64,000 nucleotides of DNA from Candidatus Uhrbacteria bacterium (GTDB lineage Bacteria; Patescibacteriota; Patescibacteriia; 2-12-FULL-60-25), in NCBI GenBank assembly GCA_003576745.1, contig QEVR01000003.1, positions 1 through 64,000 of the forward strand, in the 5' to 3' direction. Below the pieces are notes generated by a model, which was not told the origin of the DNA, searched no databases, and saw only the letters and a list, made by a program, of their open reading frames with translations. The position numbers and the translations under genes are program-made. This document shows, piece by piece, positions 26,580 through 33,630 of this stretch. Numbering within the stretch: position 1 is the stretch's first letter; each line of letters begins with the position of its first letter.

Positions 26580-28094
26580 TTATTCAAAGATTTGCCGATA
26601 TTGAAGAGCCTCGGCGACATGTTCCATGGTGATGTGTGCGGAACCGGATAAATCGGCGATGGTCAGAGCAACTTTGAGAATACGGAAATAAGATCTGCCG
26701 GAAAGGTGATATCGCGCATCAGCCTGTTCCAACAGCTTTCTCGCATCTTCATGGGGTTTGAAAGGTCCCCGGAAAACCTGCGAAGGCAGTTCGCTGTTCA
26801 GGAGGACGCCCGTTTCCCCGCGACGACCCATTTGTCTGTCACGGGCGGCGCAGACCCGTTCGCGTATGGCGGCGGATGCTTCGGCATCCGACTGGTCGAG
26901 CAGGGAGGATGTTTTTACCCTCGGAACCTCGATAAGAAGATCGATTCGATCAAGCAGGGGTCCGGAAATGCGTTTGCGGTAGAGCGCGATTTGCATAGGC
27001 GTGCAGGAACACTCATGATCCGGATCCGTGGCATAGCCGCATGGGCACGGGTTCATGGCGGCAATCAGATTGAAACGCGCGGGGAAGGTTACGGACTGCT
27101 GAACGCGCGTTACTGTGACGGTTCCATCTTCGAGCGGCTGCCGGAGATTTTCCAGCACCGGTCTGGCGAATTCCGGAAATTCATCTAGAAAGAGAACGCC
27201 GCGATGCGCAATGGAAACTTCGCCGGGACGCGGAACCGTTCCGCCCCCGACCAGCGAAGCGCCGGATGCCGTATGATGCGGCGTCCGGAATGGACGCTCG
27301 GACATGATTCCCTTGCCGGAGTCGAGTTTGCCCGCCACGCTCCAGATTCGCGTGACCTCCAGAATCTCCTCCGGTTCGAGCGCAGGCAGAATGGAAGGGT
27401 AGCAGTGCGCAAGAAGCGTTTTCCCGCTGCCCGGCGGGCCCTGCATGAGCACATTGTGGCCGCCTGCCGCCGCGATTTCGAGCGCGCGTTTTGCCTGCTC
27501 CTGTCCTCGAACCGAGGAAAAGTCGGGGAACGCCCGCGGTATGAGGCCGCGCTCCAGGATTTGCGTTGGCGTTCTTGGTAATCGCGTTCGTCCCTCAAGA
27601 TGCGCGACGACCTCGGAGAGCGATTCGGCGCCGTATACCCGAATACCAGGGACTAACGAGGCCTCTTTCGCATTCGCTCGAGGAACGATGACCTCGGAGG
27701 CGCCGCAATGTTTTGCAAGAGCTGCGAGACTCATACTTCCATGTATCGGCCGGAGCTGCCCGTCAAGGGACAATTCGCCCGCAAGCAGGGCATGTTGCGT
27801 CGCAAGACTCGCAGGATGCCGTAAACCGATAAGCGCAACGGCAATGGGAAGATCGTAGAGCGTCCCGGCCTTTCGGAGATCGGCCGGGGCAAGATTCACA
27901 ATGGCGGTTCCGCGCGGAAACAGGAACCCTGAGTGTTTGACCGCGCTTTTTACCCGTTCGCGCGCTTCTTGCACCATGGCGTCCGGCAATCCAACAACAT
28001 AAAAACGGGTGAGCCCCGGTCGGGCATCAGCTTCGACCTCAACGCGTTCTGCATCAAGGCCAATAATGGATCCGGTAAAGGTTTTGCTTGCCAT
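26580..28094 (-). CDS. comM: YifB/ComM family Mg-chelatase-like AAA+ ATPase
   Basis: 504 aa from the ATG at 28092-28094. N-terminal ChlI-like domain (FYVVGLPDAMVQEARERVKSA), Walker A QGPPGSGKTLLA, the HRGVLFLDEFPEF Walker B region, RFNLIAAMNPCPCGY with the conserved Cys cluster, and a C-terminal helical domain (SGRSYFRILKVALTIADL). ComM is a hexameric helicase that extends branch migration during natural transformation. Patescibacteria often have DNA-uptake genes, which fits. Confidence 0.94.
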   Translation of the reverse strand: MASKTFTGSIIGLDAERVEVEADARPGLTRFYVVGLPDAMVQEARERVKSAVKHSGFLFPRGTAIVNLAPADLRKAGTLYDLPIAVALIGLRHPASLATQHALLAGELSLDGQLRPIHGSMSLAALAKHCGASEVIVPRANAKEASLVPGIRVYGAESLSEVVAHLEGRTRLPRTPTQILERGLIPRAFPDFSSVRGQEQAKRALEIAAAGGHNVLMQGPPGSGKTLLAHCYPSILPALEPEEILEVTRIWSVAGKLDSGKGIMSERPFRTPHHTASGASLVGGGTVPRPGEVSIAHRGVLFLDEFPEFARPVLENLRQPLEDGTVTVTRVQQSVTFPARFNLIAAMNPCPCGYATDPDHECSCTPMQIALYRKRISGPLLDRIDLLIEVPRVKTSSLLDQSDAEASAAIRERVCAARDRQMGRRGETGVLLNSELPSQVFRGPFKPHEDARKLLEQADARYHLSGRSYFRILKVALTIADLSGSAHITMEHVAEALQYRQIFE

Positions 28095-28390
28095 ATTCCA
28101 GTCCGTCTCACGGATCGGAATATTCCGCAATACCTATTTTTATTAAGAAAACAACTCGTTTCTGACGGCGTATTTCTTAGCAGATGCGCTAGCCTACGTC
28201 TCCCTCGGGTTCCGGCATCACCCAGTATTCGGGATGCGCCATATCAGCAGACGGCATTTTGCGTCATTCGCGAGACTGCGTATCGATGGTTGGTTTTGCC
28301 TCCGTATTGCAGGATTCCGGATGCAGTCCCCTGCCTCCCGAGGACATATTGCCGACACGCTCTCGTTTTGTCTTCGCGCTTTATGCGATA
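28095..28390. other. Spacer between lspA and comM
   Basis: No convincing gene on either strand. The short phrase cacccagtattcgggatgcgcc at 28218 resembles acccagtactcgtggttcgg at 35343, inside a real gene, so a decayed gene fragment is possible. No hairpin of note. Confidence 0.35.
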
Positions 28391-28885
28391 TTACGATGAC
28401 TCGGCTCTCGCCAGATGCGATTTCTTTTTGAGAGAGATATACCAAAGGGCGCCGGCGACGATGGCGATATCCGCAAGATTTATAGCGCTTCTTCCAAAAA
28501 GAAGCATCCAGTCACGCACAAAATCATACAGAACGCGGTCGATCAAATTTCCAATGGCTCCTCCAAGAATGAGGGAAAGAGCTAAGGCTTCTCGATATGT
28601 TCGTGTCTGATCCGCCTTCCGGATCCCTCGGAGAATCAGCAGCATGACTGTCACGGTCAGAAAAATCGTGATCGGCTGCGGAAGTGGCGCATTTGCGACG
28701 ATGCCGTAATTTCGATGAATAACAAGATCAAGCACACCTTGGAAGAGCGGCGTTACCCCCTCTTTGAGATGCGTAAAAAAATATGCCTTGCTCAGTATGT
28801 CCCCAAAGACAATGCCAGCCGCCACAAGGACGGCTGGCAGCCAAACGGATTCGTCTAAAATTCTTGCGTGAGTACTTTTTTGCAT
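28391..28885 (-). CDS. lspA: Lipoprotein signal peptidase (signal peptidase II)
   Basis: 164 aa with four hydrophobic helices. The catalytic aspartates are in GGAIGNLIDRVLY and INLADIAI, and RNYG corresponds to the family N..G motif. It cleaves the signal peptide of prolipoproteins in the membrane, matching lipoprotein genes such as 63064-63843. Its ATG lies 31 nt inside the end of the upstream DksA-like gene, so the two form one operon. Confidence 0.93.
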   Translation of the reverse strand: MQKSTHARILDESVWLPAVLVAAGIVFGDILSKAYFFTHLKEGVTPLFQGVLDLVIHRNYGIVANAPLPQPITIFLTVTVMLLILRGIRKADQTRTYREALALSLILGGAIGNLIDRVLYDFVRDWMLLFGRSAINLADIAIVAGALWYISLKKKSHLARAESS

Positions 28886-29232
28886 GAAATACAGCTTGAG
28901 GAGGCTGGACGCGCCTCAAGCCGCTTTTCTTGAATGTCTTTCTTGCAGTATTTGCAGATGCCGTATGTTCCCTTCTCGATTGATTCAAGCGCTTTTTGAA
29001 CATCTCGAAGCTCTTTTTCCAGTCGCGCGTCGAGGGAAAGCTCGTCGCTGTATTCGGAAACTTCCATAGCATTATCATCATCCGAATTTCCGCCTGATTC
29101 CGGATAGGCAGCATCGAAATGCCCCGTGGACGCATTTTTCACGCCGATATCCCCCAGGTCACGTTCAAGACGGGCTTTCTCGTCGAGAAGCCGCGCTTTC
29201 ATTTTTTCAACGAATTCAGGATTGTGCGGCAT
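28855..29232 (-). CDS. DksA/TraR-type C4 zinc-finger protein
   Basis: 125 aa. A long N-terminal helical pair with an acidic tip (SDDDNAMEVSEYSDE) leads into a C4 zinc finger, CKYCKKDI...CISCKKVL, preceded by GTYGICKYC. The family binds the RNA polymerase secondary channel (DksA) or is of unknown role (YteA). It overlaps lspA by 31 nt, a pairing frequent in this phylum by recollection. The start is close to an AT-rich -10-like sequence, so the leader is short. Confidence 0.9.
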   Translation of the reverse strand: MPHNPEFVEKMKARLLDEKARLERDLGDIGVKNASTGHFDAAYPESGGNSDDDNAMEVSEYSDELSLDARLEKELRDVQKALESIEKGTYGICKYCKKDIQEKRLEARPASSSCISCKKVLTQEF

Positions 29233-29269: not shown

Positions 29270-29615
29270 TCAAATGATCAAGGGGAGGGTTGGGGGCGTG
29301 AGTAGGGGGTTGGGTTGCGTAGGGGGGAAGAGTACGTAGGACGTGGTTGCGCGGGATGTAGGTCGTGAGTCATGGGGGGTTGCGTAGTACATAGGACGTG
29401 GTTGCGTAGGGGGAGCATAATCTTCCCCATAACCTGTTTCCCTTAACCCCTTGCCCTTTTGCCAATTGCCAACAGCTTCTACCTACAATCTTCACCATAA
29501 CCCGTTCCTTTTACCCTGTGCCCTTAGCCTTTTTATCAATTCCTCATTGCTCATTGCTAATCACTAATTTCCAATTCCCTATTCCCAATTTCTAAATGCC
29601 AATTATTAATAAGAA
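29270..29615. repeat. Mosaic intergenic repeat, copy 4
   Basis: No gene. The phrase gtaggacgtggttgcg occurs at about 29336 and, slightly altered, at about 29391. It is followed by tagggggagcataatcttcccc, then cccgttcc/ttgccc, then a run of ccaattgcc, cattgctaatcactaa and ccaattcccta words, in the same order as in the other copies. Confidence 0.8.
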
Positions 29616-29623
29616 ATCGCCAA

Positions 29624-30106
29624 ATAGAAAAGGGCCTCGAACTACCCTAATGCATAATGCGCAAATGTGGCGTCGAGGCCCCCTGGCCGAGACGCTGATG
29701 AGGATCACAGGTGTTGCGGAGCGGAAATGACATCGCTCGACGCGTGCTGTGCTCAACCCATACGAGAGCGTCCAGGCTACAAGAAAGGTACTGCCGCATG
29801 AACCTGATTCCGGCAGAGCCCCGTGGGAGGATAAACCTCCATTGGGGAATACCCAAAGAGACTTTACGTTTGGTTTTTGTTTTCTCAACCCACAACGTGT
29901 TGCGGGAATCGAGAATCGAGTTCATACGCGGATCAGATATCCACAGAACAGGTTTGGATATCCGTCCCTCTGCAGTTTGAAGGTGCGTTCGACAGACGCG
30001 CTTTTCGTGGTCCGCCAGAGGGCGAACAGGTCTGCGGCTGAATTTCCCAGCCTCGAATCGCGGCCATGCCTTGCCATCCGTACTTGGACGGCTGTGTAAA
30101 GTCCGT
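29624..30106 (-). ncRNA. Unrecognised structured RNA of about 480 nt with its own promoter and terminator
   Basis: A consensus promoter (30113-30141) and a U-tailed terminator (29632-29681) frame this stretch. Between them on the minus strand are many compact helices: GGCTG/CAGCC, long-range CCCTCTG/CAGAGGG, GATATCCA/TGGATATC, CCCGCAAC/GTTGTGGG, nested CCCC-GGAGG/CCTCC-GGGG, CTGCCG/CGGCAG and GAGCG/CGCTC. I looked for RNase P, tmRNA, SRP and 6S hallmarks and found none. An open frame of 164 codons overlaps it but its residues look unlike protein. The RNA interpretation is inference; it could be a divergent known class. Confidence 0.6.
29632..29681 (-). terminator. Terminator of the putative structured RNA
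   Basis: GGGCCTCGA / TCGAGGCCC, a 9-bp perfect stem with a 32-nt loop. On the minus strand it is followed by TTTTCTATTT. Confidence 0.75.
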
Positions 30107-30112
30107 GCGTAT

Positions 30113-30141
30113 ATAATATTCCCTTTTGGATAACTCATCAA
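30113..30141 (-). promoter_or_regulatory. Promoter of the putative structured RNA
   Basis: Minus strand: TTGATG (30141-30136), exactly 17 nt, then TATTAT (30118-30113). Predicted start A at about 30106. The next protein gene on this strand lies far downstream (29232), beyond the terminator. Confidence 0.7.
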
Positions 30142-30192
30142 TTAGAGCGGAAAGATGCGGAAAAATGGAGCTTAATGTAGCAAAAACCTAAC

Positions 30193-30214
30193 TTATCCAC
30201 AGAACTGTGGATTA
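30193..30214. promoter_or_regulatory. Paired DnaA boxes / short palindrome
   Basis: TTATCCACA (30193-30201), a perfect DnaA box, faces TGTGGATTA (30206-30214), a near-perfect box in the other orientation, 4 nt apart. The same bases can fold as ATCCACAG/CTGTGGAT followed 10 nt later by TTTTT on the minus strand, so it may instead, or also, be the terminator of the gene ending at 30241. Confidence 0.55.
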
Positions 30215-30240: not shown

Positions 30241-31404
30241 TTATTTTTGTAAATCTTTCGTTTCAATGCGCGCACATACCTTTTCCGACTCGCGTATTTC
30301 AAAGGCGCGAAGGAATTTCTGCCAGTTTTCAGAAAAACCCCAGGATATGAGAAGATTTTTGAGTGGCTCATCTGCAAGACGAAGTCGTATTGTGCCGGGG
30401 CAGCCTTCGGGAGATTCGCCATTAAAAACAGGCATGCGTTCTCTGTTTCTTGAGAATGTTTCGTCGCTTGTATGGGTAGCCTTTGGAAGAACAGGACGAA
30501 GCGTGTAGGCAATTGTCCCATCTGGGAGAATGGTTTCTGTTGTCGTCGTTTTTCCAAAGGCGCCGAGAGCGAGCAGGTCATCCTCCGTGCCAAGCTGGCC
30601 GTACCAGCGTACGAGCGGACTGGAGGATGCATCAATGCCGATCATGGACGGTGGCGTTGTTATCCCCCGAAGATCGATTCCCTGACTAAGCAGCGCATCG
30701 ATTGCAGGATCGGCTTCACGTCGATCGCTTGCGAGGGTGACCACGAGCGCGTCATGAAATACGGGAGCTATCTGGATCCCATCCGGAGGAAGATTCACTT
30801 CGCCGTGTATGCCGTCCCAGGTGCCGATGATCGTCATGCGTTCGGTTTGTATGCCGAGCGAGAGATCGCTCAAAATGTCGGCACGTAATTGCCATGATGC
30901 GTCATGGTCTCGAAGACGGAACATAAGTCCAAAAAGCGATCGGACGCGAAACGATTCGTTTGCGTATTCATTTGTGTCCGCGAGAATCGTAAATATCGTT
31001 TCACGCCTCGAAAAAATTCCGGGAGCGTCTGCGGCAAATATCCTCCCAGGCATGACGGCGTAATAGAGCGGACCCCCGCTTTCTCTTGAGGCATAGCCAA
31101 GAACGACGGGTACAGAACCCCCGCGCTGCAGAGCCGTACGCCAGGCGAAAGGGAGATCCTCCAGCAGGGCGGCCGGCATTTTTGATTGAATCGTTTTCGG
31201 TTTCATTGCCGCAAGAAAAATGGTGTTTGCGGGCAATAATATGCTTGCAAGCAGGGTATAAAGCCAAAGTGCAAGAAATGTTCCCAAAAGCAAAAGCCCC
31301 GCGATGATCGCAAGGACTCTTACGGGTCTGCGTGGTCCTCGCGACGTGCCGTACGCCAGAATGGCGCTGCCTTTCGGCGTCGTATCGATGACCAAGTGAT
31401 CCAT
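30241..31404 (-). CDS. Membrane-anchored protein of unknown function
   Basis: 387 aa. A short cytoplasmic N-terminus (about 28 residues) and one strong transmembrane helix (about 29-55: VLAIIAGLLLLGTFLALWLYTLL) precede a large extracytoplasmic part with no recognised motif. It sits 3 bp after the pnp stop, so it is probably co-transcribed with pnp. The link to RNA decay is only positional. Confidence 0.75.
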   Translation of the reverse strand: MDHLVIDTTPKGSAILAYGTSRGPRRPVRVLAIIAGLLLLGTFLALWLYTLLASILLPANTIFLAAMKPKTIQSKMPAALLEDLPFAWRTALQRGGSVPVVLGYASRESGGPLYYAVMPGRIFAADAPGIFSRRETIFTILADTNEYANESFRVRSLFGLMFRLRDHDASWQLRADILSDLSLGIQTERMTIIGTWDGIHGEVNLPPDGIQIAPVFHDALVVTLASDRREADPAIDALLSQGIDLRGITTPPSMIGIDASSSPLVRWYGQLGTEDDLLALGAFGKTTTTETILPDGTIAYTLRPVLPKATHTSDETFSRNRERMPVFNGESPEGCPGTIRLRLADEPLKNLLISWGFSENWQKFLRAFEIRESEKVCARIETKDLQK

Positions 31405-31407
31405 AGG

Positions 31408-33630
31408 CTACGGCCGTCGGCCATGCGGCGGTCTTCCATGCGGACGCCCCCCCGGGCCGCTACGGCGCGGCGGTCTTGTGGCCGGCGGTTCCCCATTGTC
31501 GACATAGCCGAGGAGCGCGCGCTTCCGCGAAAGATTGATGCGTCCCATGCTGTCGATTTCAATGACTTTTACCTTTACCATATCTCCAAGTTTAACTACG
31601 TCATGGACGCTATTTACGCGTTCAGCCGCCAGTTCGGAAATATGCACGAGACCTTCCTGCTTCGGGAGGATTTCGACGAAGGCGCCGAAGTCGAGGATAC
31701 GCGTTACCGGTCCTTCAAAAATTTCACCCACCACAACTTCCCGCGTGAGCTGTTTAATCCAGTCCACGGCTTTCTGCATGCTCTCCGGATTCGGCGAGGT
31801 TACCAAGACAAGACCATCATCTTCGATATCGATCTGAACGCCGGTCTGGCCGATAATTTCATTGATCATTTTGCCTCCTGGACCGATGACGTCGCGAATT
31901 TTTTCCGGATTGATGCGGAAACTTTCGATGCGCGGCGCCCATCGGCTCAAACTCTCTCGCGGCTTTGGAATGGATGCAAGCATGTTTTCCAAAACCTTCA
32001 TGCGCCCTTCCTTAGCCTGCGTCAGGGTTCGGACAACTACATCCCACGGAAGGCCGGATGTTTTAGTATCCATTTGTACGGCCGTGATGCCCGTTGATGT
32101 GCCGGTAATTTTAAAATCCATGCCCCCTTTGCCGTCTTCCAGATCCTGAAGGTCCGTAATAACCACATAGGTTCCGGCTTCCTCGTCCGAGGCCAGGCCC
32201 ATGGCGATTCCGGCAACCGGGGCTTTAATGGGCACGCCGCCGTCCATAAGAGCGAGTGTAGATCCGCAGGTCGAAGCCATGGAACTGGATCCGTTCGAAC
32301 CCAGCACTTCGGATACCACGCGTATGGTGTACGGAAAAGATTCGCGGATCGGCAGGACGGCCTGCAATGCCCGTTCTGCAAGCGCGCCGTGTCCGATTTC
32401 GCGTCGGCCGGGACCGCGGTTTGGTTTTGCTTCGCCCACGGAGTATCCGGGGAAATTATAGTGATGGAAGTACCGTTTCGTTGCCTGGAATTCCATGGTA
32501 TCGAGCGTTTGCTCCATGCCGGGAGATCCGAGCGTAAGCGTTGAGAGCACTTGCGTTTCGCCGCGTTCGAACAAACCGGAACCGTGCGTGCGCGGCAGAA
32601 CGTCGATAATCGAAGCGAGCGGCCGGATATCGGTGAGCGAACGGCCGTCCACCCTCCGTCCTTCATCCAGAATCATGCGGCTCGCCTCATCATTCATGAA
32701 ACCGTACAACAGTCCTTGAGCATAGGTGCGTTCGGCATCCGAGGAGCCGGCCGCTTTGAGCCCGGCTTCCAGGTCCGCAGCCAAATGCGCCTTCGCTTCT
32801 TTCCGCTCCGCTTTGCTCATAAGCGGGCGGCTGCGCATGTGTTTTTTGGCGCTTTCGCGGAGGATGGCATAAGCGCGATCCTTCCACGCGTTCCGTTCCG
32901 CCTCGGCCGCGCGCGCCTCATCGTTCGCAAACAGATTCCATTTTTCTTTTCCATGCTCTGCCGCGATTTTATTGATCAGATCGATGATCGGCCCGAGCGC
33001 ATTCATGGCAAGCTTCATGGCCTCCAGCATATCCTCCTCCGGAATTTCATTGGCTCCTGCTTCCACCATAATGACTTTTTCCGCCGTCCCGGCCACAACC
33101 AAATCCAAATCGCCTTCCGCGGTTTCGCGATAGGTCGGCATAAGCACCCATTCGCCGTTCACGCGTCCAACGCGGACGGCCGCAATCGGACCTTTCCAAG
33201 GAATATCCGAGAGCATAAGGGCGCAAGAAGACCCGATGAGACCCGGAACATCCGCGTCATTTTCCTGGTCATGGCTGAAGACCGTGGTCGTGACATTCAC
33301 CTCCCTGCGGATAGTATCGTCGAACAGCGGGCGTATGCTCCGATCGATCAGGCGACCCGAAAGAATCGCTTCGTCAGTCGGTCGGCCTTCGCGCTTTATG
33401 AACCGTGAACCTTTAATTCGCCCCGCGGCATACATGCGTTCTTCGAAATCCACGCTCAAGGGAAAAAAATCTATCCCCTGGCGCACATCTCCCATGGTCG
33501 CCGTGCACAATGCGACCGTATCTCCATACCGAACCGTGCAACTGCCGTTCGCCTGCTGGGCGAGACGTCCAACGCCGATGGTAAGCCGGCGTCCGGCCAC
33601 CTCAATTGAATACTCTTTTTGAGAGTCCAT
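31408..33630 (-). CDS. pnp: Polyribonucleotide nucleotidyltransferase (PNPase)
   Basis: 740 aa, normal length. Two RNase PH cores: the first has GDTVALCTATMG and KREGRPTDEAILSGRLIDRSIRPLF; the second has FERGETQVLSTLTLG and GRREIGHGALAERAL. Then come the KH domain (IRDVIGPGGKMINEIIGQTG) and the S1 domain (FEGPVTRILDFGAFVEILP). The Pro/Arg/Gly-rich tail (PPRRSGPGGRPHG) is basic. It degrades RNA 3' to 5' with phosphate. The leader carries a long hairpin, recalling the autoregulated pnp leader of other bacteria. Confidence 0.97.
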   Translation of the reverse strand: MDSQKEYSIEVAGRRLTIGVGRLAQQANGSCTVRYGDTVALCTATMGDVRQGIDFFPLSVDFEERMYAAGRIKGSRFIKREGRPTDEAILSGRLIDRSIRPLFDDTIRREVNVTTTVFSHDQENDADVPGLIGSSCALMLSDIPWKGPIAAVRVGRVNGEWVLMPTYRETAEGDLDLVVAGTAEKVIMVEAGANEIPEEDMLEAMKLAMNALGPIIDLINKIAAEHGKEKWNLFANDEARAAEAERNAWKDRAYAILRESAKKHMRSRPLMSKAERKEAKAHLAADLEAGLKAAGSSDAERTYAQGLLYGFMNDEASRMILDEGRRVDGRSLTDIRPLASIIDVLPRTHGSGLFERGETQVLSTLTLGSPGMEQTLDTMEFQATKRYFHHYNFPGYSVGEAKPNRGPGRREIGHGALAERALQAVLPIRESFPYTIRVVSEVLGSNGSSSMASTCGSTLALMDGGVPIKAPVAGIAMGLASDEEAGTYVVITDLQDLEDGKGGMDFKITGTSTGITAVQMDTKTSGLPWDVVVRTLTQAKEGRMKVLENMLASIPKPRESLSRWAPRIESFRINPEKIRDVIGPGGKMINEIIGQTGVQIDIEDDGLVLVTSPNPESMQKAVDWIKQLTREVVVGEIFEGPVTRILDFGAFVEILPKQEGLVHISELAAERVNSVHDVVKLGDMVKVKVIEIDSMGRINLSRKRALLGYVDNGEPPATRPPRRSGPGGRPHGRPPHGRRP

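What the first reader, a model, noticed from the sequence alone, without database searches (positions are those of the whole stretch)
29624..30141. Possible new class of large structured RNA
A near-consensus promoter with exactly 17-nt spacing, at least seven compact helices including a long-range CCCTCTG/CAGAGGG pair, and a U-tailed terminator define an RNA of about 480 nt on the minus strand. I found none of the conserved cores of RNase P RNA, tmRNA, SRP RNA or 6S RNA. The overlapping 164-codon frame has an unprotein-like composition.
Basis: partly seen in the sequence, partly recalled or inferred. Interest (0 to 1): 0.78.

Follow-up and report, generated by a model that had tools for sequence, protein, structure and literature searches.

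The report
Phylum-wide structured RNA of Patescibacteria
The spot holds the gene for a roughly 480-letter folded RNA that makes no protein, matches no catalogued RNA family, and occurs usually once per genome, most often just upstream of the same gene (dksA), in many lineages of the tiny Patescibacteria, which suggests an undescribed basic cell component.

Summary
The finding holds up and is larger than claimed. Window 30106-29624 (minus strand) encodes an independently transcribed structured RNA in a Patescibacterium of the Uhrbacteria group. The 164-codon frame is not a gene: substitutions fall evenly on the three codon positions, most indels shift the frame, and homologues carry stops in every frame. 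Unguided alignment and covariance models built here find relatives in 30 of 36 genomes of the family, at least 94 of 381 of the class, and, more sparsely, in other classes of the phylum. They are nearly always single copy. Outside the family, 56 of 72 match loci lie 0.17-1.2 kb upstream of dksA on the same strand. Covariation is decisive: the 17 best-covarying column pairs of 19,306 are all predicted base pairs, and the score is 0.52 against 0.20 shuffled and at most 0.15 slid. A second class gives the same core fold de novo. No Rfam family matches, and the genome has its own RNase P RNA and tmRNA elsewhere. Function is unknown. The best guess is a trans-acting housekeeping RNP scaffold or global regulator.

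The parts
30113..30141 (-). promoter: -35 TTGATG (30141-30136), 17-nt spacer, -10 TATTAT (30118-30113)
   Evidence: same spacing in most homologues
29624..30106 (-). structured noncoding RNA, about 480 nt (start inferred from the -10 box, end from the U tail)
29986..30106 (-). variable 5' domain; includes local hairpin CGCC-CUCU-GGCG (30024-30013) with compensatory changes inside the genus
29786..29985 (-). conserved core (models R1, R2, R3)
29972..29976 (-). P1 5' strand ACUGC, pairs with 29790-29794 GCAGU
29790..29794 (-). P1 3' strand GCAGU
29931..29967 (-). P2 hairpin (29967-29954 with 29944-29931)
   Evidence: found de novo in a second class
29913..29928 (-). P3 5' strand, long-range helix; contains an invariant C-G pair and a nearly invariant U.G pair
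29795..29810 (-). P3 3' strand
29862..29886 (-). conserved A-rich single strand (GAGAAAACAAAAACCAAACGUAAAG) inside P3
29812..29853 (-). P5 hairpin (29853-29848 with 29819-29812)
29684..29779 (-). 3' domain: P6 (29779-29770 with 29693-29684), inner P7 (29763-29759 with 29700-29697), variable arms
   Evidence: a P6 pair is the best covarying pair of the full-length set
29624..29681 (-). P9 terminator hairpin (29681-29669 with 29646-29633) and U-rich tail

Best explanation
A single-copy gene for a roughly 480-nt noncoding RNA, transcribed from its own sigma-70-type promoter and ended by an intrinsic terminator. The RNA folds into a conserved core: P1 and hairpin P2, then a long-range helix P3 that closes over an A-rich single strand and hairpin P5. 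A 3' domain (P6-P8) and the terminator hairpin (P9) follow. It acts in trans as a housekeeping RNA and is not a leader of dksA. The fold and conservation are shown by covariation; transcription is inferred from the conserved promoter and terminator. Trans action is inferred from its separate promoter and terminator, and from genomes where it has moved away from dksA or faces the other way. Most likely mechanism (inferred, about 35%): the folded core is the scaffold of a stable ribonucleoprotein, and the exposed A-rich strand is a docking site for a protein, RNA polymerase or the ribosome, giving a general regulatory or assembly role rather than control of one gene. The confidence given is for the core claim, not for this mechanism.
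For: Homologues at the same place (upstream of dksA-lspA-comM, downstream of pnp) at 57-64% nucleotide identity. Unguided alignment of 28 sequences: the six best-covarying column pairs of the region are all RNAalifold pairs. CM-guided alignment of 47: the top 17 of 19,306 pairs are structure pairs; 20 of 43 pairs significant against a tree-based null. Pair counts: 24 pairs, 21 with two-sided changes; covariation score 0.532 vs 0.215 +/- 0.010 shuffled and at most 0.119 slid; 0.518 vs 0.202; 0.407 vs 0.143 in loci almost all unused in building the model. De novo recovery of the same core fold in another class. Distribution: 47 and then 94 of 381 class genomes, and further hits across the phylum, nearly all single copy. 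56 of 72 loci have dksA 174-1195 nt downstream on the same strand. Noncoding. Conserved promoter. Independence from dksA: in L051 (G014) the RNA is on the strand opposite dksA; in G028 it is 7 kb from dksA and in G032 on another contig. Specificity: R3 in the window plus 16 unrelated or RNA-free loci gives this site at 5e-36 and next best 0.019.
Against: No transcript was seen: there are no RNA-seq data here. The molecular function is a guess; no protein partner, target or catalytic signature was found. CM-fitted alignments lean towards the model's structure, although unguided alignments agree. Phylum hits with E above about 1e-5 are partly chance (several of the loci fetched lack a detected dksA; some are at contig ends). 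Six of the 36 family genomes in the class draw gave no hit, part of which may be incomplete assemblies.
Confidence: 0.88

Rival explanations
1. A 6S- or Ms1-like RNA that binds RNA polymerase and tunes transcription, functionally linked to the neighbouring dksA/traR regulator.
For: Conserved linkage to dksA; a single-copy RNA with its own promoter. Ms1, an RNAP-core-binding RNA of Actinobacteria, was also traced by gene synteny (PMC9130861, listed).
Against: No RF00013 match in the region. The fold is multi-branched with a long-range helix, not the single long hairpin with a central bulge known for 6S. The linkage includes lspA, comM and pnp, so it may be plain synteny.
Confidence: 0.2
2. A cis-acting leader (riboswitch-like attenuator) of dksA or the dksA-lspA-comM genes.
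For: It lies 0.17-1.2 kb upstream of dksA on the same strand in 56 of 72 loci.
Against: It ends in its own terminator, and promoter-like sites recur between the RNA and dksA (e.g. L163, L172, sequence). In L051 it is on the strand opposite dksA; in G028 and G032 it is far from dksA. In the window 390 nt of repeat-rich sequence separate it from dksA.
Confidence: 0.05
3. A very divergent copy of a known universal RNA (RNase P RNA, tmRNA, SRP RNA).
For: SRP RNA was not found by Rfam models in these genomes, and the block CCAGGAUCGGGUCGAAGCAG superficially resembles SRP helix 8.
Against: RNase P RNA and tmRNA are each encoded elsewhere in the genome above cut-off. The SRP-like block is the 3' strand of helix P3, with many compensatory changes. 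No Ffh M domain was found to bind an SRP RNA. Relaxed Rfam scans of the RNA and of 18 loci give nothing.
Confidence: 0.03
4. A dual-function RNA that also encodes a short peptide, for example in or near the A-rich unstructured strand.
For: The A-rich single-stranded segment is the kind of place where tmRNA carries its tag frame (own knowledge; for the segment).
Against: No frame is kept: stops in all three frames of homologues, even substitution by codon position. The A-rich segment has no conserved start or stop codon (alignments).
Confidence: 0.04
5. A protein-coding gene (164-codon frame or another frame), with RNA structure incidental.
For: The frame is open in the window; tblastn finds weak similarity in close relatives.
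Against: Substitutions 59/61/52 by codon position, 15 of 15 indels frameshifting against L002, stops in every frame; no Pfam hit; its start codon is the -35 hexamer; covariation.
Confidence: 0.01

Closest known systems
OLE, GOLLD and ROOL RNAs (large ornate bacterial RNAs)
   Same: Large, elaborately folded, independently transcribed bacterial RNAs of unresolved function, found by comparative genomics.
   Different: No Rfam match to any of them. This RNA is chromosomal, nearly always single copy, at one conserved locus across a phylum. I did not test for multimers of the kind reported for those RNAs (PMC12286853, abstract).
6S RNA and Ms1 RNA
   Same: Single-copy, presumably abundant, trans-acting RNA; here next to a dksA/traR-type transcription regulator.
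   Different: No RF00013 match and a different, branched fold with a long-range helix and an A-rich strand. RNAP binding untested.
tmRNA
   Same: Several-hundred-nucleotide RNA with long-range pairing and an unstructured A-rich segment.
   Different: The genome has its own tmRNA elsewhere. No tRNA-like domain (ARAGORN) and no conserved frame.
SRP (4.5S) RNA
   Same: Only a superficial CCAGG...AGCAG sequence resemblance.
   Different: That sequence is one strand of a long-range helix here; no SRP RNA model hit and no Ffh M domain found in the lineage.

Membership tests
RNase P RNA (RF00010) | score above gathering cut-off at this locus | tested here: not met
   No hit at the locus; the genome's RNase P RNA is at G000:C3:398195-398743, 127.8 bits
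tmRNA (RF00023) | tRNA-like domain and model match at this locus | tested here: not met
   No hit; own tmRNA at G000:C3:237215-237615, 95.4 bits
SRP RNA (RF00169, RF01854) | model match | tested here: not met
   0 of 19 genomes for each model
SRP RNA (RF00169, RF01854) | Ffh M domain partner present | tested here: not met
   PF02978 0 of 19 and 0 of 268 genomes; controls 14 of 14
6S RNA (RF00013) | model match at this locus | tested here: not met
6S RNA (RF00013) | binds RNA polymerase | not testable with these tools
   needs co-purification
OLE / GOLLD / ROOL RNAs | Rfam model match | tested here: not met
New structured RNA class | covariation beyond phylogeny | tested here: met
New structured RNA class | own promoter and terminator | tested here: met
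   sequence level only:
New structured RNA class | no protein coding | tested here: met
New structured RNA class | discrete transcript in cells | not testable with these tools
   needs RNA-seq or northern blot

The most novel reading that the evidence does not exclude
An ancestral housekeeping ribonucleoprotein RNA of the Patescibacteria, present in the common ancestor of several classes and kept in single copy, carrying out a general function (transcription, translation or membrane targeting) that other bacteria perform differently. It could be connected with the apparent lack of the signal recognition particle in the phylum.
Probability: 0.45. Interest if true: 0.95.

Novelty: categorically new. 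Interest (0 to 1): 0.86.

Why it matters
Few bacterial RNAs are conserved across a whole phylum, and most of those (rRNA, tRNA, RNase P, tmRNA, SRP, 6S) have been known for decades. An undescribed RNA of this kind in Patescibacteria, a large and mostly uncultured part of bacterial diversity, would be a basic cell component missing from present annotation. It is directly testable wherever a cultured member carries it. It also supplies a locus and covariance models that can be run over existing metatranscriptomes.

Tried and rejected
RNase P RNA, tmRNA and SRP RNA: found elsewhere or absent. SRP helix 8 resemblance of CCAGGAUCGGGUCGAAGCAG: explained as the 3' strand of P3. Long-range CCCTCTG/CAGAGGG helix: not conserved. 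Coding frames: rejected. DnaA boxes plus GC skew as a sign of a replication origin at this locus: two exact TTATCCACA boxes in the window and no clear skew switch near 30 kb; not pursued. The permissive Rfam matches (SNORD48, ctRNA_p42d and others) score far below gathering cut-offs. Pattern hits in a Microbacteriaceae and a Sphingomonas record (L063, L066) are chance: profile E only 0.01-0.02. Ten literature searches found no earlier description of such an RNA, in an open-access library only.

Full report
Locus. The window lies in a genome (G000, 1.06 Mb in 4 contigs) whose RNA-bearing relatives in a named collection are recorded as Candidatus Uhrbacteria or Patescibacteria. On the minus strand the order is pnp (31408-33630), a 387-aa protein of unknown family (30241-31404), the candidate RNA (30106-29624), dksA/traR (28855-29232), lspA (28391-28885) and comM (26580-28130).

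Observation. The promoter TTGATG-17-TATTAT and a terminator hairpin with a U tail are present. The single site is not significant by itself (5 promoter-like sites found, 3.7 expected), but it is conserved: most homologues have a TTG...TATNAT-type promoter with 17-nt spacing at the same place, and homologues in another class show sites close to TTGACA-17-TATAAT (sequence). The predicted RNA is more stable than shuffles (z -3.67). Rfam gives nothing even at E up to 5.

Homologues. Blast-level search found five relatives in genus and family. All sit at the same place, between the upstream gene and dksA, at 57-64% identity. Fetching dksA upstream regions in the family and iterating a profile HMM gave 28 sequences.

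Not a protein. Between the window and eight homologues, substitutions are spread evenly over codon positions (for example 59/61/52), most indels shift the frame (15 of 15 against L002), and all three frames of the homologues contain stops. No Pfam family matches the overlapping frames.

Structure. RNAalifold on the unguided 28-sequence alignment predicts nine or more helices. In an all-against-all covariation test with a null simulated on the tree, the six strongest column pairs are all predicted base pairs. In the core, 21 of 24 pairs have compensatory changes. With 47 sequences aligned to a covariance model, the 17 strongest of 19,306 column pairs are base pairs of the structure, and 20 of 43 pairs are significant. 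The whole-structure covariation score is 0.532 against 0.215 +/- 0.010 in shuffles and at most 0.119 when partners are slid; for a broader set it is 0.518 against 0.202; for the loci fetched afterwards, almost all new to the model, 0.407 against 0.143. Window coordinates of P1, P2, P3, P5, P6, P7 and P9 are in the parts list. P3 contains an invariant C-G pair and a nearly invariant U.G pair (33/33 and 32/33). An A-rich strand of the type AAAACAAAAACAAAA inside P3 is among the most conserved sequence.

CCCTCTG/CAGAGGG is not conserved. CCCTCTG lies in a local hairpin whose stem changes in compensation within the genus, and CAGAGGG overlaps P1 and P2.

Distribution. Model R1 found 47 of 381 class genomes (30 of the 36 family members in the draw), R2 found 94 of 381, nearly always one copy. 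R3 found further members in other classes of the phylum, for example G621 (1.5e-16), G726 (7e-11), G582 (2e-10), G478 (4e-10) and G407 (1.6e-7). The gene neighbourhood is an independent check because the models know nothing of it: 56 of 72 loci outside the family have dksA 174-1195 nt downstream on the same strand, and several of the remaining 16 end at a contig end. For nine sequences from the phylum-level hits, an unguided alignment folded de novo gives the same core: a P2-type hairpin, a P3-type long-range helix, the A-rich strand, a P5-type hairpin and a 3' domain. As a specificity check, R3 finds only this site in the window (5e-36; next best E 0.019) and nothing in 16 other loci.

Independence from dksA. 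In G014 (L051) the RNA is on the strand opposite dksA; in G028 it is about 7 kb from dksA and in G032 on another contig. With its own promoter and terminator this argues for a trans-acting RNA rather than a leader.

What it is not. RNase P RNA and tmRNA are encoded elsewhere in the genome. SRP RNA is not found (0 of 19), and neither is the Ffh M domain (0 of 19 and 0 of 268; controls 14 of 14), so this is not a canonical SRP RNA. Relaxed Rfam scans of 18 distant loci give nothing. Literature searches found no earlier description, but only open-access text was searched.

Mechanism. Shown: conserved fold, noncoding, conserved promoter and terminator sequences, near-universal single copy, wide distribution. 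Inferred: transcription, abundance, trans action. Guess (about 35%): the scaffold of a housekeeping ribonucleoprotein whose A-rich strand docks a protein, RNA polymerase or the ribosome. An RNAP-binding 6S/Ms1-like role is the leading specific rival.

Limits. No expression data were available. CM-guided alignments favour the model. Hits with E above about 1e-5 outside the class need the synteny check. E-values come from shortened calibration. The 6S family was not searched genome-wide.

Noticed in passing
whole genome G000 and 267 other Patescibacteria genomes: The Ffh M domain (PF02978) was found in 0 of 268 genomes while 14 of 14 control genomes ring; RF00169 and RF01854 SRP RNAs were 0 of 19. 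The phylum seems to lack a recognisable signal recognition particle. I could not verify this by a second method or find it stated in the literature.
   Followed up: partly
30192-30214: Near-perfect palindrome ATCCACAG-TT-CTGTGGAT containing a DnaA-box-like TTATCCACA (30193-30201), just upstream of the RNA promoter. Similar TTATCCACA/TGTGGATAA sequences occur upstream of or at the start of the RNA in many other loci.
   Followed up: partly
29280-29600: Low-complexity degenerate repeats (GGGAATTGG/AAGGG-type, then CAACCACGTCCTACGTAC-type) between the RNA terminator and dksA.
   Followed up: no
30241-31404: 387-aa protein between pnp and the RNA, conserved in the family at 25-31% identity but without a Pfam family.
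   Followed up: no
L163-L183 (other classes): In distant homologues the A-rich strand is longer, with several AAAACAAAAAYAAAA blocks, and a hairpin with stem strands UAGCCUG and CAGGCUG between P3 and the A-rich strand is strongly conserved.
   Followed up: partly
G243 (L157, L158), G023, G546, G680, G688: A second, weaker match to the RNA model in the same genome; paralogue, assembly duplication or chance was not resolved.
   Followed up: no
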